From Ancylobacter vacuolatus (lineage in GTDB: Bacteria; Pseudomonadota; Alphaproteobacteria; Rhizobiales; Xanthobacteraceae): DNA of 64,000 nt. The position numbers and the translations under genes are program-made. Below are positions 17,482 through 35,782 of the stretch, in pieces. The stretch spans positions 62,001 through 126,000 of the forward strand of contig NZ_JAUSUH010000005.1 in NCBI RefSeq assembly GCF_030813595.1. The letters run 5' to 3'. Position 1 is the stretch's first letter. Every line of letters starts with the position of its first letter. Below the pieces are notes generated by a model. That model saw nothing but the letters and a program-made list of their open reading frames with translations. It had not been told where the DNA came from and searched no databases.

Positions 17482-17765
17482 GGCCGCAATGCGCGCCCGC
17501 CACTATGGGCGGCCGGCCCCGCAGACGCCCGGGCGATGGATGGACTAAATGTGGGGTTGCAATCGCCCCGCGACATTCTGGCCCGCGCGCGCCGCCAGAA
17601 GCTGCCGGTCTCCCTGAAATAGCTGAACATTTCCCAGGGGGTGGCTGACCGGCGGCGGCGGGACGCGCGTGATCGCGTTCAAAAAATCTCGGTTGAGATT
17701 GTTGACGATGCAACCTGTAGGTGTCAGGCTGCCACTCGATGGCCGAAAGGGGCTGGGAGCGGGGC

Positions 17766-19547
17766 ATGAGGAAGACCAAGGTTGAAGAGCAGCTGAAGAA
17801 TGGGAGGCTGCAATTCCCAGATCCATTGCCCGCGCTGAGATATGGCTTCTGGTCCGCATACCGGTTCAACGACACTCATCTGCCCGAGCCAGGTGCTGAG
17901 TTTCGATATATTAAAGTAGACCTACCACTATTTTCATATGCGCCTGAATTTTCGGACATAAGACAAGAAGGAGTTGGAGATTGTTACCTTTTGTCCGCCA
18001 TAAATGCCGCTATTAGAACAAAAGATGCCGATTTTTTCTATAGCATGATGGGGGGCGACGACGAACATGTGCATGTGCGCTTTAACGACGGAAAAGGATC
18101 TCAGGTAATAGTAAGCGTTCAGCGTACGATATTGAAGCGCTTGGAAGGAAAAGAATACGTCGATATACAAGGGCATTCGGCCATATGGCCCTATTTTATC
18201 GAGAAGGCATATGCCTATTTCAGGGCATACTATATTCAGCCGCTATTTTTCGAGAGCCTGATCGACGTGCCCGTTCAGTCCCAACTGATGGCTCTGCTGT
18301 CCCGGCCGTTCACGAATCCGCCGACTTTGCCGCCTTGGCCATTCCCGGGAACCCAGCGTCCATCCCTGGGCTCATCCGATAAAAGATATGCTTCCAACTA
18401 CATCGAAGCAGTGGAAGGTGGTTTCACGGGGGCGGCGTATACGCATCTAACAGGCGCGTTGATAGACGATTCCGTTACAGTGGTTAAATTAACTAGGCCG
18501 GGACGTAGCAAACTTGTGGTTTCGGAGAAATTTTACCGAGCCAATATTCTGGCATGCTTTCTCGATGAAACGCGACCAAATCCATTCGGCGAGAAATGGG
18601 ACGCGGTTCTCGGTCATATTCTATCGGTTCTGAAGCGAGATATAGCGAACCTCGTCAATCCCGAAAATGTAATTGATTTTAAAATTGAGCATAAAAACGA
18701 GGCCGTTGATCAAATAAGAATCTATATGCTTAAGTCTATGAAACTAAACAGAAAATTGATAGATAATTATTTGTCTCTGGTATCTGAGCAAACAAATCTG
18801 GGCAGAGAAATTAGAAAAGAAAATCTTTTAAAGCTTATTGATAATATGAAATTTGAAGATTTTTCTTTTGATAAAAGTAAATTCATACAGTTAAATATAA
18901 AGAATATAAATATCAAAAGTATAATTATCGAATATATCAACCTATCATTTCCAGGGAAAAGAGGTACCGGAGAGTATGCGGATTATCAAAGTAGAATCTT
19001 CGATGCTATAAAAAATGCCGTCGGAGAAATAAAAACGGGAAACGCTCCTGTAATCGTTGGCTTAAATAAAGCTGCATTTGCTGCAACGAGAAAATATTTG
19101 AGAAGTGTTGATATTATTTTCTATAAATACGAATATCATAACAAAAGAAAAGGTCTTGTTCCCGGACATGCGTATGAAATTGAGGGCGTCCAAGAAATGG
19201 ATGTTGTGAGAAATGGTAAAATTGTAAAGCTAAAATTCATTCACGTTATAAATCCGTGGAGAGATTACGTCAGAGGTTATAAATATAAAACGGCAGAGAC
19301 TGATGGCGTAAAGACGGTGACGTCTCTTTCTGCGTTCTCTGTGAAGATGTCGAATGATCTTCCTGAAGATTCTCTTTTAATGATCAATTTTCAGGCGAGA
19401 GGTCTTGAGTCATTATCTGCGGAATTGAAAAATATATCCGACGATCTTCAAAAGAATGCATCCCAAACGACGAAAAAAAGTGACGCATTTCCAATCGAAT
19501 TGTCCGATATTACGAAGTATTTCGATAGCATATCGATCGAAAAATGA
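17766..19547 (+). CDS. Calpain-like (C2 family) cysteine protease, low G+C
   Basis: A 593-residue protein. The catalytic triad of calpains is recognisable: Cys73 in QEGVGDCYLLSA, His468 in VPGHAYEIEG and Asn496 in VINPW. Known C2 proteases cleave proteins at limited sites. The distance from Cys to His (395 residues) is far larger than in classical calpains, so a long insertion lies inside the catalytic domain. No signal peptide is seen. ATG 17766 is chosen because GGGAGCGGGG precedes it; ATG 17739 and GTG 17721 are alternatives. G+C falls to 9 of 60 bases at 18841-18900, against a very G+C-rich background, which suggests foreign origin. It opens a same-strand cluster with the DUF6603-like gene 58 bases downstream. 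Confidence 0.8.
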   Translation: MRKTKVEEQLKNGRLQFPDPLPALRYGFWSAYRFNDTHLPEPGAEFRYIKVDLPLFSYAPEFSDIRQEGVGDCYLLSAINAAIRTKDADFFYSMMGGDDEHVHVRFNDGKGSQVIVSVQRTILKRLEGKEYVDIQGHSAIWPYFIEKAYAYFRAYYIQPLFFESLIDVPVQSQLMALLSRPFTNPPTLPPWPFPGTQRPSLGSSDKRYASNYIEAVEGGFTGAAYTHLTGALIDDSVTVVKLTRPGRSKLVVSEKFYRANILACFLDETRPNPFGEKWDAVLGHILSVLKRDIANLVNPENVIDFKIEHKNEAVDQIRIYMLKSMKLNRKLIDNYLSLVSEQTNLGREIRKENLLKLIDNMKFEDFSFDKSKFIQLNIKNINIKSIIIEYINLSFPGKRGTGEYADYQSRIFDAIKNAVGEIKTGNAPVIVGLNKAAFAATRKYLRSVDIIFYKYEYHNKRKGLVPGHAYEIEGVQEMDVVRNGKIVKLKFIHVINPWRDYVRGYKYKTAETDGVKTVTSLSAFSVKMSNDLPEDSLLMINFQARGLESLSAELKNISDDLQKNASQTTKKSDAFPIELSDITKYFDSISIEK

Positions 19548-19605
19548 TCTTTCCGGTGCGTAATATATATTTGAAATGCGACCTTCTCAATAAAGGGCAA
19601 GCAAG

Positions 19606-22600
19606 ATGGCCAGCGGAAAAGAGGGAGACGGCGCGCTCATCGTGGTCCCCGTGTCCAAGGTCGATCCGGAGCAGTTCGAGGCGCTGGCGCTGAACGATCA
19701 TGGCTGCGCCCAGCTGGATCTGTGGCTGGCCACGCTGGCGGCGGGTGGCGCCACGGTCTCGGCGCGCCAGTTCGAGCTGCCGGTCTTCGGGAAGGGCGGC
19801 GCGCGTACGCTGGCGACGCGCCTTTTCGTCGCCTCCAGCGAGCGCCGCGACGTCTGGCGCCCGGGCGATGCCTATGCCGACCTCAAGCCGGCGCAGGCCG
19901 CCATCGACAAGGCGCTGGGCCTGCGCGCGGCGCAGCTCTGTTATTCCTCCTATGATTTCGCCGCCATACAGGCCGTTACCGGCAAGGTCAGCCCCAAGGA
20001 CTGCGCCCTCGTCGCGGAGACGGCGCGTGCGCTGCAGGCGGACTGGCCGCACGATCTGGCGCCGCTACGGGGCGGCATCAACTTTACCGGCGAGGCAAGC
20101 CTGCTGCCGGAGATCGACCCGGCGCTGCGTACGCGCTTCGGACTCGATGGCAGCGTGCGTGTCGCCGGCAGTGTCGGCAAGCTGCCGCAGGGCTACCGGA
20201 TCGAGGCCAGCACCGCTTTGTCCATCCCGCCGCTGGAACTGCTGGGCGGGCGCCTCAACATCGCGCTGCTCCGCGCCAGCATCGGGGTGGAAGGGGTGGG
20301 CGCGGAAGGGGAGAGGGCGGACCGCGCGACGCCGCCCTTCACGCTGGCGCTGCACGGCGCCATCACGCTCGACCAGCAGAAACTGGCGACCTCGATCGAG
20401 GTAAATGCCGGCACCCGCCACCTCGCGCTCACGGCGGACGCGCCGGACCTGATCCAGGCGGGGGCGCTGATCAAGAGCCTCGTTCCCGAGCTGGGCGACA
20501 AGCTCAGCAGTGCCTTCAGCACCATGGACAAGGTGGTTCCCGGCCTGCAACGCCTGGAAGTGTCCACCCCGCTGGACGGGCTGGAGGGTGCGCGGTTCGC
20601 GCTCTGGCTGAAGTACCGCGACGCCTTTCCCCTGCTCGATCTGATCCGCGTCACCCCCAGCCTGTACGTCGCCGGCACCTCCAGCGGCGGGGCCTTCACC
20701 TTCGATATCGAGCTGACCGGCCGGGGCGAGATCGGCAGCGGGGAGCAGACCCTCGCCTTCGAGACGACGCTCTCCCTGTCCGAGGGCATCTTCCGAGCCA
20801 CGCTGGTCGAGGGCAGCAAGGTCGTCCTGCCGGCGGACATCGCCGGCAAGGTAGCCAAGGTGGAGGGGCGCGAAAGCCTGCGGCTGATCGACCTGGCGAT
20901 CAGCGCGAACACGAAGACGCAGGCGTATTCCTTCTCGGTCATCACCATCGGCTTTCTCGAATACCGGATCGGCAAGGGATCGCTGCTGATCGGCGATGTG
21001 CGTTTCGAGATCGGCAAGCGCGAGGGCGGCAGCATCACGGCGGCGCTGGAGGGCTCGCTGGTCGTCGGCGATGTCGAGGCCGATGTCTCGATCAACATCG
21101 ACAACGGGCTGAGGGGGAAGGTGACGATTCCCCGCCTGCCGATCGGCGCCATCGCCGCCGATCTGCTGCAGATCGAGGCTCCGGAGGAACTGGCGGCGGC
21201 GGAGATCAAGGACTTCGACGTCGCGCTCACGCTCGGCAAGGAGACCGAGTTCACCTTCAAGGCCGAGTCGGATTCGGAATTCACCATTGCCGGGCTGAAG
21301 GCGAAGCTGGCCAAGCTTGACGTCAGCTATGCCGGGAAACTGAAACTTGACGCTGAAGGCCAGCTGCGCTTTGGCACCACCGAGGTGGACCTGAAGCTCG
21401 TCTATGACGAGGGAACGTGGAACTTCTCCGTCAACGCCACTACCCGCTTCGATCTCGGCACGGCGCTGCGGCCGCTGGCGGCGGAAATCGGCTTCGAACC
21501 GCCCTTCCAGGATGGCAGCCTCACCGTTACCCGCGTCGACGGCGCCCTGCGGCTCGGGTCTGAGGGCACCCGCATCGCGCTCAGTTTCGCGTTCGAGACC
21601 AAGGACGGCGATTTCCGCCTCACTCTGGTGGCGGCGCGCCAGACATCGGGGGAAAAGGCCGGCTGGGACTACAGCCTCAGAATGGGGCCGGCGACGATCG
21701 ACTTCCGCAGCCTGCCGGTCATTGGCGGGGCGATCGGCTCGGCCGCCGATGCCTTCGCCAAGAGCGGGGGCAAGAGGGAGATCGGCCTCGACGCGCTAAA
21801 GGTCGGGCTGCTCTCCACGCTTGAGGAAGCCGACATCGCCGCGCTGTTCAGGAACCTGCCGGAAAAGGCGTTTTCTGCGCCAACCGAGGTGACAGGCAAG
21901 CTCTCGCTGACCGGCACGCTGCGGCTGCTCGATTACGAGAAGCCGATCATCTATCCGCAGCCGAAGGAGAAGGCGCCGGCCAAGGAGGCCGGGGACGCGC
22001 CGAAAGCGCTGCCGGCGCCCGCCAAGGTCGAAACTCCCGCAAAGGTCGAAACGCCCGCAAAGGTCGAGGCGGGCGAGAAGCCCGCCGTTCCCGCCGCGCC
22101 GGAAGACAAGCCGGCTGACAATCTGAACTGGCTGACGATCCAGCGCGATTGCGGCCCGCTGCACCTGGCCAAGCTCGGTTACGGGGTGCGGCAGGCGGGC
22201 GGCAGCTGGGAGGTCTCCGCTGCGCTGGCGGGCAGGATCAGCCTGGCGGGGGTGCAGCTGGAGCTGATCGATGCCGGCGTCAGCGTCAGCCTCAACGCGC
22301 TCACCGCGCCACGCGGCCGGCTGAAGGGCATGAGCCTCAGCTTCAAGCGTGGCTCGGTGTCGGTCGAGGGCGGCTTCCTGCAGATGTCGGAGACCGTCTA
22401 TGGCGGCCAGCTCAGCATCCAGCTGCCGAAAATGTCGATCGGCGTCGTCGGCCTCTATGGCACCTATCCGCTTCCCTCAGGCCGCTCCTCCACCTCCCTG
22501 TTCATCTATGGAACGCTGAGCCTGACCGGTGGCGCCGGTATCAAGCTGGGCGCGATCACGCTGACCGGCCTGGCGCTCGGCTTCGGCTATAACCGCCGGG

Positions 22601-24333
22601 TGGTCGTGCCTGACATCGGCACGGTGGCGGACTTCCCGCTCGTGGCGCTGGCGATGAAGGAGAGCGCGCCCGACGCGGACAGGCCCTCGGCGGCGTCCAT
22701 GCTCGCCACGCTGGAGAAGCACCTGCCCTTCGACGAAGGCCAGATGTTCGCCGCGCTGGGGCTGCGCTTCACCATCGCCGAGACCATCGACGCCTTCGCG
22801 CTGGCCATCGCCCAGTTCGGCAAGGATGTCGAGTTCTCGCTGCTGGGCCTCGCCCGTTTCGAGAAGTCGGTCGGCGACCAGAAATTCTGCCGGGTCGAGC
22901 TGGCGATCAAGATGACCTTGCGGCCGGACGAGGGCGTGTTCCTGCTGCAGGCCGAGCTGACCGCCAATTCCTGGGTTCTGGACCCGTCCTGCCGGCTCAC
23001 CGGCGGCTTCGCGCTGGGCGTGTGGTTCGCCGGCGCGCGCAAGGGCGATTTCGTGCTCACCATCGGCGGCTATCACCGCGCCTTCAAGCCGCCGGCGCAT
23101 TACCCCGCCGTGCCGCGCCTCGGCCTCAACTGGGCGGTGACCAACGAGCTGACCCTCAAGGGCGAGCTCTATTGCGCGCTCACGCCGTCGCATCTCATGG
23201 CGGGCGGGCGTTTCGAGGCGTCCTTCGTCCATAGCCGCATCAAGGCGTGGTTCGTCGCCGCCATCGACTTCCTGATCAGCTGGGCGCCGCTGGAATACAG
23301 CCTGGATGCCGGCATCTCGATCCGGATCGAGGCCGATCTGTGGCTGTTCTCGATCAATCTCAGCCTCGACGTCCAGCTCAGCCTGTGGGGGCCGCCCTTT
23401 GCCGGGCGGGTGAGGGTCAACATCTCGGTGCTGTCCTTCGAGATCGCCTTTGGCGGCACCAAGGCCGCCAGCGAGATCCGCAGCTGGGCGCAGTTCGGCG
23501 CGCTGTTCCTCGACAAGGCCAGCACAAATTGGCAGGCGATACCCACCGCTGGAACACCCGTGGAGGCGCCGGCCATTTGCGGGGCGGCGCTGGTCGGCGG
23601 GCGGCTGTCGCAGCCGGGTGACAAGCCGCCGAGCGGGCCGTGGCTGGTGCGCGGGGACGAGCTGGTGCTCTCGGTGGCGTCGATCCTGCCGGCCACCAGC
23701 CTCGCCTTCGGCACGGTGAGGGATGCGGTGCCGCCGAAGGGCCGCAGCGGCCGCCCCCTCGCGCTGGCCGAGCCGCTGGTGCTGGCGGTGACGGTGCGTC
23801 GCCATGTCGCCGAGAGCGCCAATTTCGGCATCGTCCCGCTGGCGATCACCGCGGCGGAGAGCGCGCTGACCATCGCCATCGTCAAGGATCTTCCCGGCGG
23901 CGGCACCGTGCCGGTCGATCTGACGGGCTGGGACAGCGAGGCCGAGCGCCAGGGCATGCCGGCCGCCCTGTGGGACCGGCACCCCCCGGACAAGGCGCCC
24001 GCCGCCAAGATGACCGGCGCCTATCTCACCGGCCTCGCCCGCCTGCGCCCGCCGGCCGGCCAGCGCCGCGGCGAGGGCACGAGGGTGGATATCGCCCGCC
24101 ACCGCGAGAGCGACCTGATTTTTCGCGAGGGCTCCGTCCGCGACCCGGCCGTGCAGGCCCCCGTCTCAGCCGGCGCCGCGCGAGACGTGGCAACGGCGCA
24201 GGGCGCCCGCCAGGCCGAGCTGGTCAAGGCGCTGGGCGGGCTCGGATTTCCGATCGCGCTGGGCGCCGGGGAGGGCGCGGCGCGTCCCTTCCACGCCCCG
24301 CCGATGAGCCGCAGCTGGAGCCAAGGAGAGTGA
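19606..24333 (+). CDS. Giant DUF6603-like beta-rich protein, 1575 residues
   Basis: No signal peptide is apparent. Residues 1-785 consist of long amphipathic beta-like stretches. Residues about 785-840 are a Pro/Ala/Lys/Glu linker with three exact six-residue repeats. Residues about 855-1290 resemble DUF6603. The most telling stretch is GGYHRAFKPPAHYPAVPRLG, continuing LNWAVTNELTLKGELYCALT and ending SHLMAGGRFEA. The last 285 residues are a separate extension. The function of DUF6603 is not known to me. AAGGGC precedes the start, and two bases separate its stop from the next ATG. Its G+C is that of the chromosome, unlike the calpain gene before it. The family call rests on recalled pattern only. 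Confidence 0.62.
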   Translation: MASGKEGDGALIVVPVSKVDPEQFEALALNDHGCAQLDLWLATLAAGGATVSARQFELPVFGKGGARTLATRLFVASSERRDVWRPGDAYADLKPAQAAIDKALGLRAAQLCYSSYDFAAIQAVTGKVSPKDCALVAETARALQADWPHDLAPLRGGINFTGEASLLPEIDPALRTRFGLDGSVRVAGSVGKLPQGYRIEASTALSIPPLELLGGRLNIALLRASIGVEGVGAEGERADRATPPFTLALHGAITLDQQKLATSIEVNAGTRHLALTADAPDLIQAGALIKSLVPELGDKLSSAFSTMDKVVPGLQRLEVSTPLDGLEGARFALWLKYRDAFPLLDLIRVTPSLYVAGTSSGGAFTFDIELTGRGEIGSGEQTLAFETTLSLSEGIFRATLVEGSKVVLPADIAGKVAKVEGRESLRLIDLAISANTKTQAYSFSVITIGFLEYRIGKGSLLIGDVRFEIGKREGGSITAALEGSLVVGDVEADVSINIDNGLRGKVTIPRLPIGAIAADLLQIEAPEELAAAEIKDFDVALTLGKETEFTFKAESDSEFTIAGLKAKLAKLDVSYAGKLKLDAEGQLRFGTTEVDLKLVYDEGTWNFSVNATTRFDLGTALRPLAAEIGFEPPFQDGSLTVTRVDGALRLGSEGTRIALSFAFETKDGDFRLTLVAARQTSGEKAGWDYSLRMGPATIDFRSLPVIGGAIGSAADAFAKSGGKREIGLDALKVGLLSTLEEADIAALFRNLPEKAFSAPTEVTGKLSLTGTLRLLDYEKPIIYPQPKEKAPAKEAGDAPKALPAPAKVETPAKVETPAKVEAGEKPAVPAAPEDKPADNLNWLTIQRDCGPLHLAKLGYGVRQAGGSWEVSAALAGRISLAGVQLELIDAGVSVSLNALTAPRGRLKGMSLSFKRGSVSVEGGFLQMSETVYGGQLSIQLPKMSIGVVGLYGTYPLPSGRSSTSLFIYGTLSLTGGAGIKLGAITLTGLALGFGYNRRVVVPDIGTVADFPLVALAMKESAPDADRPSAASMLATLEKHLPFDEGQMFAALGLRFTIAETIDAFALAIAQFGKDVEFSLLGLARFEKSVGDQKFCRVELAIKMTLRPDEGVFLLQAELTANSWVLDPSCRLTGGFALGVWFAGARKGDFVLTIGGYHRAFKPPAHYPAVPRLGLNWAVTNELTLKGELYCALTPSHLMAGGRFEASFVHSRIKAWFVAAIDFLISWAPLEYSLDAGISIRIEADLWLFSINLSLDVQLSLWGPPFAGRVRVNISVLSFEIAFGGTKAASEIRSWAQFGALFLDKASTNWQAIPTAGTPVEAPAICGAALVGGRLSQPGDKPPSGPWLVRGDELVLSVASILPATSLAFGTVRDAVPPKGRSGRPLALAEPLVLAVTVRRHVAESANFGIVPLAITAAESALTIAIVKDLPGGGTVPVDLTGWDSEAERQGMPAALWDRHPPDKAPAAKMTGAYLTGLARLRPPAGQRRGEGTRVDIARHRESDLIFREGSVRDPAVQAPVSAGAARDVATAQGARQAELVKALGGLGFPIALGAGEGAARPFHAPPMSRSWSQGE
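22018..22071 (+). repeat. Three tandem 18-base units in the DUF6603 gene linker
   Basis: Units at 22018-22035, 22036-22053 and 22054-22071 differ by only a few bases and encode PAKVET, PAKVET and PAKVEA. They form the flexible linker between the two halves of the 1575-residue protein. Confidence 0.9.
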
Positions 24334-24335
24334 TC

Positions 24336-26342
24336 ATGCCCAATGCCGGCTCCCCGCCTGACGCCCTCAAGGTCGAGCTCTACGACGCCTACCACCCGGC
24401 GCTCACCTCCGGCAGCCACCGCGTGCTGGTGCAGCAGTCGCTGACCTATCCCGACCCGGACGGGTCGGCGAAGGCGCATCATTATTACCGCGACGAAGCC
24501 TTCCTCGTGCGAGGCCCGCGCTTCTTCCTCGACGAGAACGACATCCACGCCCGCTACCCCTCCCTGGGGGCGATCGGCGATTTCGGCCGGCACGTTCCCA
24601 ATATCGTGCTGCGCAAGCGGGCGCTGCCCTGGGAGCGCCAGCTGGCGCTGGGCGGAGCGGCGCGAGCGCCGTGGATGGCGCTTTTCCTGCTCACCGAGGC
24701 CGAATTCCAGGCGCAGGGCGGCGAGGCGGCGGTGCAGCTCGTCGCGCCCGAGGCGCTGATCGCCGCCGGCCGCCGCAGCGCCGACGGCAAGGTGCTGCTG
24801 CCGAAGCTCGACGCCGAGCCCGACAATGACGCGGGCAATCTGCGCGCGAGCGTGATCGACCTGGAGCGCGATCTCGCCCGTGCCCTGTGCCCGTCGGCGG
24901 CGGATCTGCCGCTGCTGGCGCATGTGCGCCAGGTCGGCATGGGCGACAAGCCGCGCGAGGCGATGCATGGGGCGGGCGAATTTCCCGTCGTGTGCGCCCG
25001 CCGGATTCCCGCGCCCGGCGCCAATCTCGCCTTCCTGGTGTCGCTGGAAGGCTGGGAGGAACTGGTGGAGGGAACGCTGCCGGAAGGGCCGGCCCGCCTG
25101 CGGCTGGTGGTTCTGGCGCGCTGGCGCTTCACCCATGATCCCGGCTTTTCCCACAGCTTTGCCGGCCTCGCCCGGCGCCTCGGCACCGACACGCTGCGCA
25201 CCCAGAGCCCGCCCGGCACGCCGGAGGCGCTGGCCCGCCCGCTCGCCGCCGGCCACACCCCGATGCCCTGCCGGAGGGGCGAGGGCGACGCGCGGCTGGC
25301 CTGGTATCGCGGCCCCTTCGCGCCGGCGCCGGTGGCGCCGCTGCCGGTGGACGAGTTCGCCCATGCCGACGCCGCCCTGATCGTCTCGCCCGAGGATGGC
25401 GCGCTCACCCTGTCCTATGCCGCCGCCTGGCAGTTGGGGCGGCTGATGGCGCTGGCCTCCCCGGGCTTCCTGGCCGCCACAAGGGCCTTCATCACCGAGG
25501 ATGCCGGCCCGCGCGAGGTGGCGTTCCGGCTCGACATCTTCATGCGCAACCACCTGCTGGCGATCCGGCGGGAATGGGGCGCGCCCGCTCCCTCTCCCGC
25601 CGCCGACACCGGGGCCGAGCCGCCCGACACCTTCCATGCCGCCCTGAAGATGATCGGCTGGCTCAAGGGCCTGCTGCTGCTGGAAGGCGTTCCCTTCCCC
25701 TATCTGGTCGCGGGCGAGGCGCTGCTTCCGGTCTCCAGCCTTCGCTATTTCCATGTCGATTCCAACTGGCTGCTGGCGCTGGCCAATGGCGCGCTCAGCC
25801 TCAGCGGCAGCGCGACCCGCGCCGCCACCCGCGCCGGGCCGTCCATGCGCCGCTTGCTGTCGCAGCTGATGGAGCGCTGCGCGGCGGGCGCGGCAGCCGA
25901 GCTTGATCCCAAGGGCGAGCTTCTCGACCGGCCGCGCACCGGCTTCCTGCTGCGCTCGACCCTGGTGTCGGACTGGCCGGGGCTGGAGACGGTCGTCACC
26001 TCGACGCCGGAGAGCGCCCGTCCGCTGCGGCTGGAGCGGCTGGCGCCGGATGTGCTGCTCGGCATCACCGAGGGACAGATCGCCCGGCTGACGCTCAAGG
26101 AGCCGCCCGAGGGGCTGGCCTTCCGCCTGCCGGAGCCGCGCGCCACCGTGCCGGAACCGGATGCGCGGGGCCTGTTCAGCCCGCTGGAGCGGCTGCGGGC
26201 GGAGAGCGCGCTGGGCCTTACCCGCCTCCAGCCCGCCACGGCGTCCGCGTCGCCGCCGGACCCGCTTTCCGCCGCCGCCTTCGCCGCGGGCGCGCTGAGC
26301 AGCGGCAGCATCCGGAACTTTGTTTGGGAGATCACGCGGTGA
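24336..26342 (+). CDS. Unknown 668-residue protein of the DUF6603 locus
   Basis: I do not recognise a family. AAGGAGAG precedes ATG 24336, and only two bases separate it from the DUF6603-like gene, so the two are surely cotranscribed. No signal peptide or transmembrane segment is visible. The N-terminal 130 residues (KVELYDAYHPALTSGSHRVL, then FLVRGPRFFLDENDIHARYP) look like a globular beta-rich domain. The middle carries FRLDIFMRNHLLAIRREWG and FPYLVAGEALLPVSSLRYFHVDSNWL, and the C-terminal 150 residues are Pro/Leu/Arg rich. The stop overlaps the GTG start of the next gene. Its length, coupling and company suggest a structural or assembly partner of its neighbours. Confidence 0.7.
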   Translation: MPNAGSPPDALKVELYDAYHPALTSGSHRVLVQQSLTYPDPDGSAKAHHYYRDEAFLVRGPRFFLDENDIHARYPSLGAIGDFGRHVPNIVLRKRALPWERQLALGGAARAPWMALFLLTEAEFQAQGGEAAVQLVAPEALIAAGRRSADGKVLLPKLDAEPDNDAGNLRASVIDLERDLARALCPSAADLPLLAHVRQVGMGDKPREAMHGAGEFPVVCARRIPAPGANLAFLVSLEGWEELVEGTLPEGPARLRLVVLARWRFTHDPGFSHSFAGLARRLGTDTLRTQSPPGTPEALARPLAAGHTPMPCRRGEGDARLAWYRGPFAPAPVAPLPVDEFAHADAALIVSPEDGALTLSYAAAWQLGRLMALASPGFLAATRAFITEDAGPREVAFRLDIFMRNHLLAIRREWGAPAPSPAADTGAEPPDTFHAALKMIGWLKGLLLLEGVPFPYLVAGEALLPVSSLRYFHVDSNWLLALANGALSLSGSATRAATRAGPSMRRLLSQLMERCAAGAAAELDPKGELLDRPRTGFLLRSTLVSDWPGLETVVTSTPESARPLRLERLAPDVLLGITEGQIARLTLKEPPEGLAFRLPEPRATVPEPDARGLFSPLERLRAESALGLTRLQPATASASPPDPLSAAAFAAGALSSGSIRNFVWEITR

Positions 26343-29300
26343 GCGCTGCCGAGACTGCCGCGAAGGCGGCCACCCCGCTGCTGGTGCCGATCCAGCTCGA
26401 AGCGCTGGTGATCGAGGGGGACGCCAGCCCGAGCGGCGAGCTGCTGCTGGCGCGCCACACCGCCGAACGCGGCGCCACACTGCGCTGGAAGGCGACGCGC
26501 GCCAATTATGTTCCCGGCCTGCGTACCCTCGTCGATCCCAAGCTCACGCCCTTTCTGGGCGCGGTGCCAGAGGCGGGCGGGCGGCTGGCGCTGCGCGAAA
26601 GCGAGCGCCCGCAAAAGGCCGATCGCGGCGTCTATCTGCGCTGGCTCGTTCCCGCCGGCCTGCGCAAATCGCTGGCCGAGAACAGCCTGAGCTTTCCCGC
26701 CTTGCCGGACCAGTGGCTGATTGTGCGCCTGTTGCGCCGCGCGGCCTCCCGCCGCGAGGTCGAGCTCAAGGCGTGGGTGATCGACGGGTCGGCCTATCCC
26801 GGCGATGCCACCTCGGCCAGCCTGCCGGTGGCGATGCCCGGCAAGACCGCTGCGGCGCCGCCGGAACTGACGGCGACGCCGGTCGGGATCGCCCGCCCGC
26901 TGGAGGCGTATGACGCCGCGCAACAGGCGCAGATGGCGCACACCACGCTGACCGCGCTCGGCACCCCATGGACCGGCTCGCCGACCTTCTCCACCTCGCT
27001 GGCGGAGAACCGCAACATCCTGTCCTGGCGCGACGGGCTCGCCGATCTGCGCGACGGGCAGGACAAGCTGCAGCTGGCCTGCGTCAGCTATGCGGTGGTC
27101 GGCTGGTATCGCACGCCCGGCGCCGATCCGCTGGTGGCCCTGCCGCAGACGCTGAAGGACGCGGCCGGCCGCCCGGCCGATCTCGCGGCCGTGCTGGCGC
27201 ATCTGGGCTGGGCGATGCCGCCTGGCTTGCCTGAGACGCCGGGCCCCTGCCTGTTCCACGGTGAGACCGCCCATATCAATTTCTGGGACGCGGAGCGCTA
27301 TCGCGGGCCGCTGCTCGGCTACCCCCAGTCGCCGCCCGCTCATGGCGGCCTGGCGCCGCCGGAGGCGCGGTTGGAGGTGGGGCTCGGCACCTCGGCGCCG
27401 GCGGCGCTGGCCGCGCTGGTGTCGGACCAGTGGTGGAAAGACGAATTCGCGCCGGACGACCGGCCGAAATGGGCGGTGCTGGAGGGGCATTTGCTGGGGG
27501 CGGCCGACCCCGCCGGGCTCGATACCGCCACACGCCGGCGGCTCGACCATCCGCTCGGTTTCACCTCGCTCGATGCCGGGGTGCTGCACCATCTCGTGCA
27601 GAGCGCCGACGCGGCGGACAAGGGCCCGGCGCCGACGGAGGCGCAGAGGCAGGAACTGGCCCGGCTCAATGGGCGGCAATCGGCGCTGAATGACGAGGTA
27701 CGCGCGCTGGTCACGCGGGGGAATGCGCTGCGCATGGCCTGGCGCGAGCGCATCGTCGCGGTGCGGACCGGCACGCTGCGCCTCAACGCGCAGCCGGACC
27801 CGCTGGCCGGGCTGCAGGCCGATCTCGACGCCTTCGCCCAGGCGGTGGAGACGGCCTCGGCCGCCGCTGGCGCTCTTGCCGCCTCCGTTGCCGCTCTCAA
27901 GGCCGGCCTGCCCAAGGGGTGGGAGCTCAATGCCGCGCCCGAGCCGCCCTTTTGGGTGGCGGCGGACCCGGTGGTGATGCTGGCCGGAATGCCTGGCGCC
28001 AGCCGGAGCGCATTGCCGGAACAGCTGCCCTGCCGCACGCCGGCGGGCCTCGTCGCCACCGCGCCTGTTGCGGCCGAGCGCGCCGCCTTTCCCACGGAGG
28101 GCCTGACAGCGCTGGCGACTACCCTCGACGCCAGGGGAGTGCCGCAGGCCGCCATCCTTGCCGCCGTGATGCGCGAAGCGGCGCTGATGGAGCAGGCGGT
28201 CGCCTCACGCGCCTTTGCCGAGGCCGAGCCCTTTGCCGGGCAGATCGAATGGGAGCAGTGGAAGAACGCGCTGCAGGCGCGCTTCCGCTCGGGCACGGCG
28301 GGCGTGTCGCTCACCCTGGCCGGGGCGGATGGCCGCGCGGTTCTCCCCGAGGCGCTGGTCGCCGTCTGGGGCCAGCAGCCCTGGTCGCCGCTTTATCTCG
28401 ACTGGAACGTGAACTGGCACGCCAGCCCCGCCGGGCTGAAGGACTGGACCTTCCCCCTTGGCCAGCAGGCGCTGCACTATGACTACCGGCAGCCGGACGG
28501 CGTGCCGGCGGCCGGACGCGAGGCTCCTTCGGGGGTCAAGGGCCGCAGCCTGATGGCGCCGATGGATGGCGGCTTCATCACCACCGCGCTCGAAGCCTCC
28601 ATCGCCGAGGCAAAGCTGAACAATGGCGATTTCGCCGCCCTGACCCGCACGCCGCTGGTCGGGCAGGAACTGGCCGGGCTGGGGGCGAGCGTGCGCCGGC
28701 TCAACGCCCAGGCGCTGACGCCCCGGCCCGACGCCGCGCTGCCCTGGCTCACCCCGGCGACCGACCGGCAGCTGCAGGCCGGTATGAGCGCGTTGGCCCG
28801 GCTGGCGTCCGGCCTGCGCATTGCCCTGCCCGCGCCGCTGCCGCCACTGCCCGGCGCGCCGGGCGAGGCCCCTCCGCTTGAGGCCGGCTGGTTTCGCCTT
28901 GAGCATCTATGGGTGGTGGACGATTTCGGCCAATGGGCCGAGCCGATCGCCCGGCCCGGGACAAGGGTGCAGCCGCATCCGCGCTCGCGCCTGCGCCTCG
29001 GCGCCAGCGTGGACGACACCCAGTGCGGGCCCTTCGCCCGACCGCCCCGACTGACCGACGGCGCGCGGCTCGACATCTCCTTCGTCGGGCCGCAGACGGC
29101 GATCCGCGGCTGGGTCTATCTCAACCGGCAGGACCATGCGCTTGTTGTCTGCGCCGGCGATGGGCGGCTGCTGGGCGAACTGGCGCTGCTGCCCGGCGGG
29201 GCCGGGCGCGTCGTCTGGCGCAGCCTTGCCGAGGCCGCGCCCGTCGCCCTTGCCGGGATCGATGATCCGGTGCTCGCCCATCTGGCGGCGTGGCTGGCGG

Positions 29301-29965
29301 ACCCGGCCGAGGGGGCCGACCGGCTGGCCCGGATGCTGGCGATGGTGGAGGAGGCGCTCCCCACCATAAGGGCGCGCGAGGCCGCTCCGGAGCAGATGCT
29401 GATCGGCCGGCCGCTGGCGGTGGTGGTGGCGCAGGTCCGGCTGCAGTCCTTTCGCGGCACGCCCGGGGCGGCTGCCGGCGCGCTCGCCCTGCCGCTGCGC
29501 CTCGGCAACCGGCGGGACCCGCAGGACGGGCTCGTCGGCCATGCGCAGGGGCTGGCCTTTGCCGCCTTCGCCGGGCTCGACGGGGCGCAGACGCCGCAGG
29601 CGGGGTTCGCCACTGCCAGCGACCTCGTGCTGCTCATGGACCCGTCGGCCTCGGTGGAAGTCGCCTGCGGCGTGCTGCCGGCGCGGGCAATGAGCCTGCC
29701 CGTCGACGAGGTGCGGGCCGGGCTGGCGCGGCTGGAGATCGGCTTCAGCGTCGGCCCCGTGCTGTTTCACGGCGCGCTGCCGGTCCTGCCGCCGCCGGCC
29801 AGCACGGGCGGCACGTGGGAATTGCGCGAGGCCGGCGGCGCTCTCTCGCCGGTGGCGGCGCTCGGCATCGCGCCGCGCTTCGACGGGGCGGCGCCCTCGG
29901 CGGGCGAGGGCTGGCTGATCCTGCGCCGCACGCAAACGCCGGAAAAAACAGCGCCAGAGGCCTGA
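26339..29965 (+). CDS. Unknown 1208-residue protein of the DUF6603 locus
   Basis: The start is GTG 26339, overlapping the preceding stop (GTGA), so translation is coupled. No signal peptide or membrane segment is seen. Near residue 100, RGVYLRWLVPAGLRKSLAEN and FPALPDQWLIVRLLRR recall large uncharacterised bacterial proteins with the pattern RGVxLxWxxPxxL...FPxxPxxWLVVR; I know no function for them. Residues about 430-520 (the AQRQELARLNGRQSALNDEV region) look helical. The C-terminal third is beta-like, including an FRLEHLWVVDDFGQW segment. The gene is intact and has the chromosome's composition. A role as scaffold or surface component is only a guess. Confidence 0.7.
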   Translation: MSAAETAAKAATPLLVPIQLEALVIEGDASPSGELLLARHTAERGATLRWKATRANYVPGLRTLVDPKLTPFLGAVPEAGGRLALRESERPQKADRGVYLRWLVPAGLRKSLAENSLSFPALPDQWLIVRLLRRAASRREVELKAWVIDGSAYPGDATSASLPVAMPGKTAAAPPELTATPVGIARPLEAYDAAQQAQMAHTTLTALGTPWTGSPTFSTSLAENRNILSWRDGLADLRDGQDKLQLACVSYAVVGWYRTPGADPLVALPQTLKDAAGRPADLAAVLAHLGWAMPPGLPETPGPCLFHGETAHINFWDAERYRGPLLGYPQSPPAHGGLAPPEARLEVGLGTSAPAALAALVSDQWWKDEFAPDDRPKWAVLEGHLLGAADPAGLDTATRRRLDHPLGFTSLDAGVLHHLVQSADAADKGPAPTEAQRQELARLNGRQSALNDEVRALVTRGNALRMAWRERIVAVRTGTLRLNAQPDPLAGLQADLDAFAQAVETASAAAGALAASVAALKAGLPKGWELNAAPEPPFWVAADPVVMLAGMPGASRSALPEQLPCRTPAGLVATAPVAAERAAFPTEGLTALATTLDARGVPQAAILAAVMREAALMEQAVASRAFAEAEPFAGQIEWEQWKNALQARFRSGTAGVSLTLAGADGRAVLPEALVAVWGQQPWSPLYLDWNVNWHASPAGLKDWTFPLGQQALHYDYRQPDGVPAAGREAPSGVKGRSLMAPMDGGFITTALEASIAEAKLNNGDFAALTRTPLVGQELAGLGASVRRLNAQALTPRPDAALPWLTPATDRQLQAGMSALARLASGLRIALPAPLPPLPGAPGEAPPLEAGWFRLEHLWVVDDFGQWAEPIARPGTRVQPHPRSRLRLGASVDDTQCGPFARPPRLTDGARLDISFVGPQTAIRGWVYLNRQDHALVVCAGDGRLLGELALLPGGAGRVVWRSLAEAAPVALAGIDDPVLAHLAAWLADPAEGADRLARMLAMVEEALPTIRAREAAPEQMLIGRPLAVVVAQVRLQSFRGTPGAAAGALALPLRLGNRRDPQDGLVGHAQGLAFAAFAGLDGAQTPQAGFATASDLVLLMDPSASVEVACGVLPARAMSLPVDEVRAGLARLEIGFSVGPVLFHGALPVLPPPASTGGTWELREAGGALSPVAALGIAPRFDGAAPSAGEGWLILRRTQTPEKTAPEA

Positions 29966-29978
29966 AACGGGGATCGGG

Positions 29979-32597
29979 ATGACATATCGTACAAGGTTCT
30001 CCACCCTGCTGACCGCCGCCCTTCTGGCGGTCCTCCCCAGCCTTGGCGGTGCGCCCGCCACCGCCCAGAGCCCGGCATCGCTCCCGCCGCCGCTGACGGA
30101 GGCGCGCGTGGTGCCCGGCACGCCGCCCACGCTGCAATTGGTCGTTCGGCCAAAGCTCGGGGGCGATGAGGCGACCCTTCCGCGCGTGGTGCAGATCCTG
30201 ATCAGTCGCGACAGCCTCGCCGATGACCTCATCCGCGACCAGTCCGATGACCTCTGGCAGGATATCGGCTCGGTCAAAGGGGTGCTGCGCGACCCCGTGG
30301 GCGACCCGCCCTGGTTCCTGATGCGCAGCGCCGCCGCCGATCCGGACAAGGTCCGCATCGGCATCGCCAACTACAATCTCAACCGGAGCGACGCCTCGGA
30401 CGTGAGCCCGGTCAACACGGCGCTGCGCATCCTCCTGCCGTTGCGCAAGGGCAACCAGGCCCTGACGCTGGAGGTCAGCGCCGGCGCCAGTATCGACACT
30501 CTGTCGGCGCCCATCCCGGTGACGGTGCCGCTGCAGCAGCCGGCCGTGCTCAATCCCGACGCCAAGGTCGACTTCGGCGTCGATGTCGCCGCGCCGAACG
30601 CGCTGGCGATGGGCGCCACCGTCACCCTGACCTGGAACGTCACGGACTGCGTCCAGGCGACGTTGAGCGGCCCGATCGATTTTCGCCAGCCGGTCCTCGC
30701 CATCAAGCCCATTGGCGGCGTGTGCGCGGGCTCGAAGAAGGTGCTGGCGCTGGGCAAAGCCACCTATCAGCTCACGGCCGAGCTTGCCGGCAAGGCGGAC
30801 AACCCCGTCAGCGCCGTCGTTACCAAGACCATCAGCCTCGAGGTCCTGCGTTTCGATCAGTTCGCCAATCTGACGCTGACGCCGCCCTCGGTGCTGCCCG
30901 GCGGCAAGGTGCGGGCGCGCTGGTACATCCGCGAACTGCCGGCCGACGACCGGCGCGAGGCGGTGCTGTCCTGGACCGATGCCAATGGCAACCGACGCCT
31001 GCAGCGGCTGCGTGACTCGTCGAGCCAGACCACCTCGGGCGAGATGAGCTTCGTCGTGGCGCAGCAGCCGGAAGGCGTCGATACGGCCGTCCGGCTGCAC
31101 TATGGCGAGGAAACCATCGAGCGCTCCTTCGATATTGAGCGCTGGCAGGTGGCGGGACGTTCCGCGATCGATGCCGGGTCGTTGCGCGGCATGGCCCTCG
31201 CCGGCGGCCGGCTGGTGCTGTGCAGCGAGAAGGGCATCTTCCTCTCCGAGGTCGGCGCGGGCGGCGGCATCGGCGCGGGCAGTGTCGGCAAGGTCAACGA
31301 CCCGTTCCCGGATTTTTCGCGCATGCCCATCACCGTTGGCGTTCGCCCGGCGGCGGGCAGTCCCGAAGCTGTCGCCGGCGGGCGGGCGTCGATCGAGCAG
31401 GCCCCGTGCCTGGCGGTGCGCGCCATTGATGGCGAGCGGGTGGCGGCGCTGGTCCAAATTGAGAAGCCGGCGGCCGGCAGCCCCGGCTATGCCGAGCTGA
31501 CGCTGCTGTCGCCGGCGGCCCAGCTGGCGAGCTATCCGGTGACCCTGACGGATGGCCCGGTCGATACCGGCGCCGCGCAGCTGCGGGACTATCAGCTCGG
31601 CATGCTGTATGGGCGGATCATCGTGCAGGTGCAGATCGGCCCGCGCGACCGCAGCACCGATCTCAATCCCCGCTCCTCCGTCAAGGCGTACTCGATCGCC
31701 GAGGGCGACATACGCGCCAGCACCGCCAGCTGGCGGCCCGAGCCGGCGCTCGCCACCGACGAACTGCGACCCCGCTATGGCTGGGAGCTGGTGGACGGCT
31801 TCGGTGTCGACAATGCGGCGCTGTTCCTAGTGAACGCGATCAGCGGCGAGACCGCACGCTACGAGCCGAGCGCCGCCAGCCGCGACCGGCTGGCCGCCGC
31901 CAGGGCCAGCGGCTCGCCGGCCAAACTGGCCGCGGCGCGCGAGGCGGTGGAGATCGAGTTTCCCACATCGGCCAGCAGCCTGGGCAAGGAGCAGGCCGCC
32001 GCGCTGGGCAACGGGCCGATGACCAATGTCGGCGGGGTGCTGGTCGCGTTCGGGGCTGGCGTGGCCTACAACCCGCAGACCAATCAGTGGCAGCCCGGCT
32101 CCTTCGGCGAGGCCGGCGGCAAGGGCAGCGTCGCCGCCTATCGCGGCGACGGCGAGCCGCGCCTGTGGCTGGTGAAGGCCAATGGCGAAAGGCTCAGCCT
32201 GCCGGTGGAAAGCCCGCGCCTGTTCGTCGCCGACTATTTCGATAACGGGCGCGCCGCCAGCCTGCCTTATCTCGTCCTGGCCGCCCGGGTGACGATCCGC
32301 AGCCGCGAGGCGCTGCAATGGCGGACCGACCGGCGCACCCAGTTCAATCAGGTCGGCAGCACTGTCACAGAGACGGTGAACTGCACGGTGAAGGGGGTCA
32401 CCACCCCGGTGCCGATGGTGGTGAGCACCTACACGCTGCGCTACCCCGATCGCGGCTTCGCGCTCATCGGCGGGTCCGCCGACGGCAAGACCAGCGTCTC
32501 CAAGGCGCACAAGGGCAATGGCAGCTGGGACGTCACCGCCAGTTCCGACCCCTGCGTGAGCGTTCGCATCGAGCCGATCGCGGTGTCGAGCCAGTGA
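29979..32597 (+). CDS. Secreted 872-residue protein of the DUF6603 locus, function unknown
   Basis: Residues 1-30 form a Sec signal peptide (TLLTAALLAVLPSLGGAPAT, then AQ), so this member of the cluster is exported. The mature protein is beta-rich. One stretch (MGATVTLTWNVTDCVQATLSG, about residue 210) looks like an Ig-like or PKD-type module with a cysteine pair. Later parts (GMALAGGRLVLCSEKGIFLS and VGGVLVAFGAGVAYNPQTNQW) resemble propeller-like repeats. No enzyme motif is recognised. It lies 13 bases after the 1208-residue gene. Its export contrasts with the apparently signal-less neighbours. Confidence 0.7.
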   Translation: MTYRTRFSTLLTAALLAVLPSLGGAPATAQSPASLPPPLTEARVVPGTPPTLQLVVRPKLGGDEATLPRVVQILISRDSLADDLIRDQSDDLWQDIGSVKGVLRDPVGDPPWFLMRSAAADPDKVRIGIANYNLNRSDASDVSPVNTALRILLPLRKGNQALTLEVSAGASIDTLSAPIPVTVPLQQPAVLNPDAKVDFGVDVAAPNALAMGATVTLTWNVTDCVQATLSGPIDFRQPVLAIKPIGGVCAGSKKVLALGKATYQLTAELAGKADNPVSAVVTKTISLEVLRFDQFANLTLTPPSVLPGGKVRARWYIRELPADDRREAVLSWTDANGNRRLQRLRDSSSQTTSGEMSFVVAQQPEGVDTAVRLHYGEETIERSFDIERWQVAGRSAIDAGSLRGMALAGGRLVLCSEKGIFLSEVGAGGGIGAGSVGKVNDPFPDFSRMPITVGVRPAAGSPEAVAGGRASIEQAPCLAVRAIDGERVAALVQIEKPAAGSPGYAELTLLSPAAQLASYPVTLTDGPVDTGAAQLRDYQLGMLYGRIIVQVQIGPRDRSTDLNPRSSVKAYSIAEGDIRASTASWRPEPALATDELRPRYGWELVDGFGVDNAALFLVNAISGETARYEPSAASRDRLAAARASGSPAKLAAAREAVEIEFPTSASSLGKEQAAALGNGPMTNVGGVLVAFGAGVAYNPQTNQWQPGSFGEAGGKGSVAAYRGDGEPRLWLVKANGERLSLPVESPRLFVADYFDNGRAASLPYLVLAARVTIRSREALQWRTDRRTQFNQVGSTVTETVNCTVKGVTTPVPMVVSTYTLRYPDRGFALIGGSADGKTSVSKAHKGNGSWDVTASSDPCVSVRIEPIAVSSQ

Positions 32598-32652: not shown

Positions 32653-33717
32653 ATGAGCGAAGACACCGTGACCCCGCTATGGACCCTGACCCGGGTCAGC
32701 CAGATCGACGGCAAGAATCTGAGCCTGACCCTTGACGGGGAAAGCACGCCGAAGGTGGAGATAACCCCCGAAGGCAAGGCTACCTTCAACACCTCGATGA
32801 CGGTCGTCGGGGCCGTGGTCATGGAGGCGGCGGTGACGGCCGGGGCCGGCCTCACCGTGAATGGCGAACTGAAGGTGAACGGCCCGGTTTTGGCGACCGG
32901 CACGATCGCGGCGGCGCAGGGGCTCACGGGCCTGGGGGCGGTGCCGATCGGCGCCATCCTCATGTGGTCGGGTGATCCGGCCAAGCTGCCCGCCGGCTGG
33001 TTCCTGTGCAATGGCGGCGGCTGGCTGGCCAATGGCGACCCCATTCCGGACCTGCGGAGCCAATTCATCGTCGGCCACGATCCGGCCAGCACCGACTACA
33101 AGCAGGTGCACAACCGCGGCGGCACCAGCGAGAGCACGCTGAAGGTCGAAAACCTGCCCAAGGACGATGCCCTGACGCTGAAAGAGCTGGTGGTCTCCGT
33201 CCCCTATATAGACGGCGACAACAATGCCCTCTCGCGAAACGTTGGCCGGGATGTGAAGGTCGGCACGAACGGATCGTCCAAGCCGTTCGACAATCGCCCA
33301 CCCTGGTATGCGCTGGCCTATATCATCTATAGCGGGGCTGGTGCCGTGGCGTGCGCCGATCCCAACATGCGGGCGGTCCTGCGCAATGACCAGTTCCTGA
33401 GCGCGGGGCAGGGCATCGCCTCGCCCTCCGGGCGCTACGCCCTGACGATGGCGGCGGGTGGCACGCTCAGGCTGCTGGACATGCAGGACAAGGCGCTCCC
33501 CAAACAGCTCTGGGTGGCCAAGCAGGGCGAATCCGAGGCTTTCGGGGTTGAGGCACGCATGCAGCCCGACAGCAATTTCGTCATGTATGACGGGAACCGG
33601 AGCGCGACCTTTGCCTCGGATACCTTCAAAAAGGGCGGTGTGCTGCTGCGTGTAACGGACGACGGCAAGGTCACCATCGACGGCGCCGACGGCAAATCTG
33701 TCTGGTCGAAGCCGTGA
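32653..33717 (+). CDS. Phage tail collar-like protein with C-terminal bulb-lectin domain
   Basis: A 354-residue protein of three parts. Residues 1-60 are a short module shared with the next gene (WTLTRVSQIDGKNLSL). Residues about 65-230 hold a tail-collar-like domain (PIGAILMWSGDPAKLPAGWFLCNGG, then IPDLRSQFIVGHD), as in phage short tail fibres and microcystin-dependent proteins. Residues about 245-354 resemble a bulb-type mannose-binding lectin. They include a perfect QxDxNxVxY motif at Gln304 to Tyr312 (QPDSNFVMY), then a second degenerate copy ending in VWSKP. It probably recognises a glycan at the tip of a fibre-like assembly. No signal peptide is seen. No other phage genes are present. 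Confidence 0.82.
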   Translation: MSEDTVTPLWTLTRVSQIDGKNLSLTLDGESTPKVEITPEGKATFNTSMTVVGAVVMEAAVTAGAGLTVNGELKVNGPVLATGTIAAAQGLTGLGAVPIGAILMWSGDPAKLPAGWFLCNGGGWLANGDPIPDLRSQFIVGHDPASTDYKQVHNRGGTSESTLKVENLPKDDALTLKELVVSVPYIDGDNNALSRNVGRDVKVGTNGSSKPFDNRPPWYALAYIIYSGAGAVACADPNMRAVLRNDQFLSAGQGIASPSGRYALTMAAGGTLRLLDMQDKALPKQLWVAKQGESEAFGVEARMQPDSNFVMYDGNRSATFASDTFKKGGVLLRVTDDGKVTIDGADGKSVWSKP

Positions 33718-33757: not shown

Positions 33758-34360
33758 ATGAACGACCAGACCGTGACGCCGAACTGGACCCTGACCCGGG
33801 TCAGCCAGGTCGATGGACGCAATTTCAGCCTCACCTGCGAGGGCAAGAGCGAGCCGGCGCTGGAGATCACCACCGAGGGCAAGACCACGCTCAACACCCC
33901 GCTCACCGTCACCCAGGCGGTAACGGCGAGCGGCGGCATGCAGGTCAGCGGCGGCAAGCTGGCGGTCACGGGCGGCCTTGCCGTCACCGGGGCGATCGAG
34001 GTGACGGGCGGGATCACCGGCCCGGGGATGACGCCGAAAGGGGCGATCATCATGTGGGCGGGCGATCCCAAGGATGTCCCCGCCGGCTGGGCGCTGTGCG
34101 ACGGCAGCCACGGCACGCCCGACATGCGGGCGAGGTTCCCTGTGGGCGCGGATGGCGGCTCCTTCGCCGTTGGCAGGCCGGGCGGCGCAACCAGTCACCA
34201 GCATGATATTCATGCATCGGTCGAGCTGAAGGCGATCCGGTCGGCGGGTAACAATTACTTCGAGGTCATTACCCCGGGCACATATCCGATCAAGGGCACT
34301 ACCACGCTGTCCGACCACCTGCCGCCCTATCTGCCGCTGCATTTCCTCATGAAGCTGTAG
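33758..34360 (+). CDS. Phage tail collar-like protein, second copy
   Basis: A 200-residue protein whose first 55 residues closely match those of the preceding protein (WTLTRVSQVDGRNFSL; about 32 of 47 aligned residues identical). It then carries a tail-collar-like domain with PKGAIIMWAGDPKDVPAGWALCDGS and TPDMRARFPVGADG, ending in a His/Pro-rich tip (TSHQHDIH, HLPPYLPLHF). It lacks the lectin part. The shared N-terminus suggests that both attach to the same partner through it. ACAGGAG precedes ATG 33758, and it is the last gene of the accessory cluster. Confidence 0.82.
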   Translation: MNDQTVTPNWTLTRVSQVDGRNFSLTCEGKSEPALEITTEGKTTLNTPLTVTQAVTASGGMQVSGGKLAVTGGLAVTGAIEVTGGITGPGMTPKGAIIMWAGDPKDVPAGWALCDGSHGTPDMRARFPVGADGGSFAVGRPGGATSHQHDIHASVELKAIRSAGNNYFEVITPGTYPIKGTTTLSDHLPPYLPLHFLMKL

Positions 34361-34470: not shown

Positions 34471-34497
34471 CATCCCGCAGCGATTGGGCGGGAATGA
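34471..34497. repeat. Degenerate CATCCCGC...GCGGGAATG palindrome
   Basis: CATCCCGC (34471-34478) and GCGGGAATG (34489-34497) pair with one bulged base. It resembles the palindromes at 14720 and 60471 and overlaps the start codon proposed for the next gene. Confidence 0.4.
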
Positions 34498-35702: not shown

Positions 35703-35782
35703 TCCCGCCCTCCCGGCTTCGATGTTGCGATGCAGCATCAGCCCCGCTACGGTAAGGCCGTCCGGTTCCGAAAGGCGCGCCA

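What the first reader, a model, noticed from the sequence alone, without database searches (positions are those of the whole stretch)
17766..19547. Bacterial calpain with a 395-residue gap between catalytic Cys and His
The triad Cys73, His468 and Asn496 is visible in the contexts GDCYLL, GHAYE and INPW. In classical calpains the Cys-His distance is about 157 residues, so some 240 residues are inserted into the protease core. The insertion contains the most AT-rich part. It may be a regulatory or substrate-binding domain, or an effector carried by the downstream structure.
Basis: partly seen in the sequence, partly recalled or inferred. Interest (0 to 1): 0.66.

Follow-up and report, generated by a model that had tools for sequence, protein, structure and literature searches.

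The report
Swappable calpain-like protease gene
A soil bacterium carries a relative of animal calpain proteases with two extra pieces built into its core; the gene sits at the head of an unstudied operon, where related strains have swapped it for very different versions, which suggests it is the exchangeable enzyme part of that system.

Summary
17766-19547 encodes a 593-aa calpain-family (C2) protease with Cys73, His468 and Asn496. The Cys-His distance is 395, against 157 on calpain-9. The extra length is two insertions, about 57 and about 180 residues; a conserved F[PS]GKRGTGxY motif marks the subfamily. The triad is kept in 6 of 6 genus members with the gene.

The larger finding lies outside the coordinates. 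All 6 calpains found in 30 genus genomes sit directly upstream of DUF6603 (in one strain only fragments of it), which starts a conserved multi-gene module; here the operon also has tail-collar fibres. The calpain gene is an exchanged allele: 39-43% identical between strains whose neighbouring proteins are 79-99% identical, with conflicting trees (AU p 0.002-0.003 in the calpain, about 1e-6 or less in flanks). In one strain the core is gone and only the two ends remain. In 5 other DUF6603 loci the slot seems to hold a metallo-beta-lactamase-fold protein.

Best reading: an exchangeable hydrolase cargo of a DUF6603 system. Cargo role, activity and target are inferred. Structure prediction failed (pLDDT 29), so the fold is untested.

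The parts
17766..19547 (+). calpain-family (C2) cysteine protease gene, 593 aa
   Evidence: PF00648 E 8e-14; triad invariant in 6 of 6 genus homologues
17766..17945 (+). N-terminal end segment (aa 1-60), retained in the G406 remnant protein
17982..17984 (+). codon of catalytic Cys73 (GDCYLL)
   Evidence: alignment to calpains
17946..18236 (+). Cys lobe block (about aa 61-157), mean pairwise identity 64% among five genes
18237..18383 (+). insertion 1 (roughly aa 158-206), proline-rich by eye; about 57 residues more than calpain-9 in the window protein (47 on the family profile)
   Evidence: gap between matched blocks
18462..18944 (+). insertion 2, placed at aa 233-393 by the G385-based alignment (HMMER's pairing would place it at about aa 269-461); about 180 residues more than calpain-9 in the window protein (166 on the profile); AT-rich (GC 0.33), 34% mean pairwise identity; helical only in a low-confidence model
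   Evidence: secondary structure only from the pLDDT 29 model
18945..18986 (+). conserved SFPGKRGTGEYADY motif (aa 394-407), 93% mean pairwise identity among five genes; KRGTG also in G385
19167..19169 (+). codon of catalytic His468 (GHAYE)
19251..19253 (+). codon of catalytic Asn496 (INPW)
19446..19544 (+). C-terminal end segment (aa 561-593; FPxELSDxTKFFD), retained in the G406 remnant; strong matches in 7 of 30 genus genomes, all at this locus
17585..19746 (.). divergence island: allele replaced by recombination (41-72% DNA identity inside among window/G806/G804; mostly 83-99% outside, with a dip to 73-74% near 24.1 kb in pairs with G804)
19606..24333 (+). DUF6603 protein, 1575 aa (domain 22138-23673); no relative among solved structures by sequence
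   Evidence: PF20248 E 1.5e-126
24330..26342 (+). 670-aa protein of the conserved DUF6603 module, no Pfam or PHROGs match
26324..29965 (+). 1213-aa protein of the conserved DUF6603 module, no match over a family cut-off
29979..32597 (+). 872-aa protein with an N-terminus that looks like a Sec signal peptide (by eye); found in 6 of the 20 loci, those of the genus-type operon
32653..33717 (+). tail-collar fibre-like protein, 354 aa
   Evidence: phrog_1800 tail collar fiber E 1.8e-15
33758..34360 (+). tail-collar fibre-like protein, 200 aa
   Evidence: phrog_5795 tail protein E 1.9e-12; phrog_1800 E 1.5e-10

Best explanation
The gene encodes a C2 protease, catalytically competent by its motifs, of a subfamily whose core is enlarged by two insertions. 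It is the exchangeable enzyme component (cargo) of a DUF6603 operon. Shown by sequence: family, intact triad, insertions, linkage to DUF6603 in the genus, allele replacement by recombination, loss of the core with both ends kept in one strain, and apparently a different hydrolase fold in the same slot elsewhere. Inferred: the two ends bind the DUF6603 complex, the protease is carried or presented by that complex (whose fibres would bind a target), and the insertions shape substrate choice or hold the enzyme inactive until release.
For: Profile and triad. Among 30 genus genomes PF00648 matches in 6 at E <= 0.001 (5 over the family cut-off; G804 below it in that search) and the C-terminal profile strongly in those 6 plus G406; all lie directly upstream of DUF6603 sequence. 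Against the window, in G806 and G804 the calpain is 39-43% identical while LysR is 97-99%, DUF6603 82-87%, g670 90-96%, g1213 86-93% and g872 79-85%. Tree conflict: the calpain tree joins G806 with G802 (100/100) and rejects window+G806 (AU p 0.0033) and window+G806+G804 (p 0.002); LysR rejects G806+G802 (p 1e-36) and the module backbone rejects G806+G406 (p 1e-6). In G806 the swapped tract includes about the first 90 codons of DUF6603. The G406 remnant keeps the N- and C-terminal ends, in frame, without the core, and its tail has pN 0.08 against pS 0.17. The DUF6603 slot appears to hold MBL-fold proteins in G761, G694, G798, S. clavuligerus and Embleya NBC_00896. Tail-collar fibres lie in the same operon.
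Against: No activity, secretion or binding data. G802 keeps an intact calpain although its DUF6603 is in fragments and no other module gene was found in the 20-kb stretch, so the protease may work alone or be decaying slowly. Nine of the 20 loci compared have no recognised enzyme in the slot. The N-terminal end of the G406 remnant shows no constraint (pN 0.14, pS 0.10). The MBL calls are weak: Pfam scores mostly below the curated cut-off, G798 by motif only with no Pfam hit, Embleya by eye only. The DUF6603 N-terminus (first 90 residues) of window and G804 stays 77-90% identical although their calpains are 39-41%, which does not favour a co-evolving dock. No contractile sheath was found in the genome, so there is no known injector. 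The structure model failed.
Confidence: 0.45

Rival explanations
1. Maturation protease: the calpain processes the very large DUF6603, 670-aa and 1213-aa proteins so that the complex can assemble, rather than being its cargo.
For: It is the first gene, co-directional, with a 58-bp gap to DUF6603. In G806 the swapped tract carries the DUF6603 N-terminus along with the protease, as an enzyme-substrate pair might.
Against: G406 has an intact-looking module with no protease core. 15 of the 20 DUF6603 loci have no full calpain by motif, and 5 seem to have a non-protease fold in the slot. The calpain diverges far more than its supposed substrates.
Confidence: 0.18
2. Stand-alone cytoplasmic or defence protease whose linkage to DUF6603 is only shared hitch-hiking on one genomic island.
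For: No signal peptide evident by eye in the translation; G802 retains the calpain without an intact module; G385 has a KRGTG-type calpain at a contig end and no DUF6603 match in that genome.
Against: In the genus 6 of 6 calpains are immediately upstream of DUF6603 sequence, including G795 where the operon sits in a different chromosomal context. No PADLOC or PHROGs match.
Confidence: 0.22
3. Secreted antibacterial toxin with immunity, as in polymorphic toxin systems.
For: Allele replacement with conserved ends is toxin-like. Calpain domains fused to WXG100 are proposed T7SS toxins (PMC4631099: passages and sections 10 and 14 read).
Against: No immunity-sized gene between calpain and DUF6603 in the 7 loci examined. 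Toxins of that kind usually vary at the C-terminus (recalled), whereas here the middle varies and the extreme C-terminus is kept.
Confidence: 0.1

Closest known systems
Calpain family, MEROPS C2 / Pfam PF00648 (animal calpains; solved calpain-9, calpain-3, calpain-1)
   Same: Cys, His and Asn blocks in the same order with GDC, GHAY and NPW motifs
   Different: Cys-His spacing 370-395 instead of 157; two insertions; no other Pfam domain found, so no sign of the further domains of classical calpains
Bacterial calpains (P. gingivalis Tpr, cyanobacterial and other homologues; Rawlings 2015 PMC4631099; PMC9380684)
   Same: Rare, scattered in a minority of species of a genus; mostly a single C2 domain; triad kept
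   Different: Those measured here have gaps of 157-182 (G385: 288); linkage to a DUF6603 operon and allele swapping are not mentioned in the passages read
DUF6603 (PF20248)
   Same: The downstream gene is a strong member (E 1.5e-126)
   Different: A family of unknown function; no paper in the held library names it
Extracellular contractile injection systems and phage tails
   Same: Tail-collar fibre-like proteins in the operon
   Different: No sheath gene found in the genome; the three module proteins match no PHROGs family

Membership tests
Calpain / C2 peptidase | Match to Peptidase_C2 above the curated cut-off | tested here: met
   51.8 bits against 23.8, E 8e-14
Calpain / C2 peptidase | Catalytic Cys, His, Asn in order in calpain-like contexts | tested here: met
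   C73, H468, N496; invariant in 6 of 6 genus homologues and in G385
Calpain / C2 peptidase | Papain-like fold with the triad assembled in space | tested here: inconclusive
   AlphaFold2 with 2 sequences, pLDDT 29; only the block order supports it
Calpain / C2 peptidase | Proteolytic activity | not testable with these tools
   no experiment
Classical (animal-type) calpain | Cys-His spacing near 157 and calcium-binding C-terminal domains | tested here: not met
   gap 395; no further Pfam domain
Contractile injection system effector | Contractile sheath encoded in the genome | tested here: not met
   no PF04984 match in the genome (the control rings in 3 of 14 genomes)
Polymorphic toxin system | Adjacent immunity gene | tested here: not met
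   the spacer to DUF6603 holds no gene in 7 loci; a distant immunity gene is not excluded
Polymorphic toxin system | Exchange of toxin alleles beside conserved parts | tested here: met
   allele exchange only, toxicity untested:

The most novel reading that the evidence does not exclude
DUF6603 operons encode an undescribed, non-contractile protein particle of bacteria, in this genus decorated with tail-collar fibres, that carries interchangeable hydrolases (calpain here, metallo-beta-lactamase-fold enzymes elsewhere). The two ends of the calpain are docking tags, and the calpain insertions are cargo-specific parts.
Probability: 0.2. Interest if true: 0.82.

Novelty: new variant of a known kind. 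Interest (0 to 1): 0.52.

Why it matters
The 2015 survey of bacterial calpains says that the pressure which keeps them is unknown (PMC4631099, passage). Here a calpain has a genetic partner (the DUF6603 module), a natural core-less strain, and a set of swapped alleles, so its role becomes directly testable. It also gives DUF6603, a family of unknown function found here in three phyla, a functional lead.

Tried and rejected
AlphaFold2 on window + L001: pLDDT 29, discarded; no fold search was run on it. Viral contigs searched with the calpain alignment, the G385 calpain and DUF6603: no confirmed relative. Phage records: none. Plasmids with P0001: none; with the G385 calpain: one Mycolicibacterium C2 protease, with no DUF6603 annotated in its 20-kb stretch. 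Rfam on 17300-19700: none. Promoter/terminator scan: within shuffled expectation (5 promoter-like against 4.0, 1 terminator-like against 2.6). Idea of a common C-terminal tag on other proteins: rejected, as beyond the 7 locus copies the next best match in 30 genus genomes is E 0.003. Contractile-system idea: no sheath gene. The first 5-row calpain tree did not resolve the swap (AU p 0.17 and 0.39); adding G802 did. Both are reported.

Limits: P0001 rings in 1 of 385 class genomes and the Pfam calpain in 1 of 289, each time the window's own, so the spacing comparison outside the genus rests on 4 calpains. HMMs for the module genes were built iteratively from the same 20 loci, so those E-values are in-sample; stretches for G777, G589 and G747 end before the third gene. 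The edges of the insertions are uncertain: HMMER pairs calpain's first PC2 helix with aa ~255-268, while the G385 alignment suggests aa ~408-425. The G806-G406 comparison covers only the ends of the calpain, because G406 lacks the core.

Full report
1. What is there. The reading frame 17766-19547 (+) gives 593 residues with GDCYLL at 71, GHAYE at 467 and INPW at 495, so Cys73, His468 and Asn496 are right. It matches Peptidase_C2 (PF00648) at E 8e-14 in two separate stretches. A profile of five homologues finds solved calpains (best E 9e-07, calpain-3), with three blocks in the same order: Cys block, YEALxGG..TG block, His/Asn block; single blocks are weak, and the middle one is not significant alone. 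On the calpain-9 chain in that alignment the Cys-His distance is 157 by my count. Counted on the same alignment, the window protein has about 57 extra residues between blocks 1 and 2 and about 180 between blocks 2 and 3 (47 and 166 on the family profile).

2. The insertions are a subfamily trait. The six genus calpains have Cys-His gaps of 370, 370, 375, 375, 378 and 395. A calpain in G385 (same family; the contig ends inside it) has gap 288 and the same F[PS]GKRGTGxY motif. Other bacterial calpains seen here have 157, 179 and 182. Among five of the genes insertion 2 has 34% mean pairwise identity, the adjoining helix-strand part 31%, and the KRGTG motif 93%. The synonymous proportion of differences exceeds the non-synonymous one in 10 of 10 pairs of five genes, although the window's pairs are saturated at synonymous sites, so the protein looks to be under purifying selection. 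The AlphaFold2 model had pLDDT 29 and cannot be used.

3. Where it sits. The genome belongs to the same genus as Ancylobacter rudongensis: the contig length of NZ_FMTP01000001.1 equals that of G804:C7, and G804 is listed as same genus. Downstream follow DUF6603 (1575 aa), a 670-aa and a 1213-aa protein, an 872-aa protein with a Sec-like N-terminus (by eye), and two tail-collar fibre-like proteins. In 30 genus genomes DUF6603 matches in 9 (one of them, G802, a fragment below the cut-off) and PF00648 in 6 (5 over the cut-off). All 6 calpains lie directly upstream of DUF6603 sequence.

4. The calpain is an exchanged allele. By tblastn the calpain is 35-41% identical to the window's in four strains (39% in G802), while in G806 and G804 LysR is 97-99%, DUF6603 82-87%, g670 90-96%, g1213 86-93% and g872 79-85%. 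In the more distant G815 and G795 DUF6603 is 65-68%. DNA identity among window, G806 and G804 falls to 41-72% between 17.6 and 19.75 kb, against mostly 83-99% outside. G806 is 78-95% identical to G406 at the two ends of that tract, but 65-90% downstream of 20.3 kb and 77-92% in the LysR flank, where it is 96-99% to the window in LysR. At protein level its first ~90 DUF6603 residues are 90-97% identical to G406 (57-73% to the window) and then switch to the window type. Trees agree: the module joins window with G806 at 100/100 (LysR at 81/82, with G804 at 100/100) and rejects G806+G406 (p 1e-6), LysR rejects G806+G802 (p 1e-36), while the calpain joins G806+G802 at 100/100 and rejects window+G806 (p 0.0033) and window+G806+G804 (p 0.002). 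A first test without G802 was undecided (p 0.17 and 0.39).

5. Separable parts. G406 has a 127-aa protein made of the calpain's two ends without the core, in frame, followed by an intact-looking module. Against G806 its tail shows constraint (pN 0.08, pS 0.17) but its head does not (pN 0.14, pS 0.10). G802 is the reverse: intact calpain, DUF6603 in fragments, and no match to the other module genes in the 20-kb stretch. The module therefore seems not to need the protease, and the protease gene can outlast the module.

6. The slot elsewhere. I compared 20 DUF6603 loci: 9 from the 299 genomes of the phylum search, 6 more from the 30 of the genus search (G802 treated apart), and 5 of the 7 plasmid records. 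g670 relatives are found in 19 of 20 and g1213 relatives in 16 of 20; in 3 of the 4 misses the stretch ended first. The upstream slot holds a calpain in 5, a remnant in 1, an apparent MBL-fold protein in 5 (G761, G694, G798, S. clavuligerus, Embleya NBC_00896; the first two are near copies), and nothing I could name in 9. The MBL evidence is weak Pfam hits (2e-4 to 4e-5, mostly below cut-off) for G761, G694 and S. clavuligerus, the HxHxDH motif alone for G798, and a reading by eye for Embleya.

7. Mechanism. Most likely the calpain is exchangeable cargo of a DUF6603 complex. Linkage and swapping are shown, slot sharing is likely; docking, delivery and target are inferred. The maturation-protease rival is weakened by G406 and by the many DUF6603 loci without a calpain. 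The stand-alone rival is kept alive by G802 and G385. A standard toxin-immunity pair is not seen, and no contractile sheath was found in the genome. The DUF6603 N-terminus travelled with the calpain in G806, but window and G804 keep a similar DUF6603 N-terminus beside very different calpains, so a matched dock is not established.

8. Literature. DUF6603 is named in no paper of the held library. Two papers hold both Ancylobacter and calpain; their titles and counts suggest passing mention (listing only). Rawlings 2015 (PMC4631099: passages plus sections 10 and 14 read) describes bacterial calpains as rare, mostly single-domain and of unknown selective value, and mentions WXG100 fusions as possible toxins. 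The term 'insert' occurs 0 times in it. PMC9380684 was searched for passages only. The statement that this linkage is unpublished rests alone.

Noticed in passing
L083:5787-6670: In G802 the DUF6603 gene survives only as fragments beside an intact calpain, and the other module genes gave no match in the 20-kb stretch: an operon caught in decay.
   Followed up: partly
L028:1074-6130: On a Streptomyces plasmid, CATRA caspase/TPR-associated and CHAT-domain conflict genes lie about 5-10 kb upstream of a DUF6603 operon.
   Followed up: no
L008:13947-15067: A second KRGTG-type calpain (G385, Cys74-His362) at a contig end, close to an acyltransferase-like gene; no DUF6603 match in that genome.
   Followed up: partly
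L022, L024, L025, L026, L027: A long DUF6603 form of about 3250-3400 aa, preceded by a 200-300-aa protein of unknown function that looks related by eye in these five genomes.
   Followed up: no
window 34494-36931: An NTP_transf_5 nucleotidyltransferase gene and a patatin-like phospholipase gene follow the fibre genes; a similar patatin-like gene (by eye) also follows the decayed locus in G802, so they are probably chromosomal flank.
   Followed up: no
window 19606-19875: About the first 90 codons of DUF6603 travelled with the calpain allele in G806, which may mark a contact region.
   Followed up: partly
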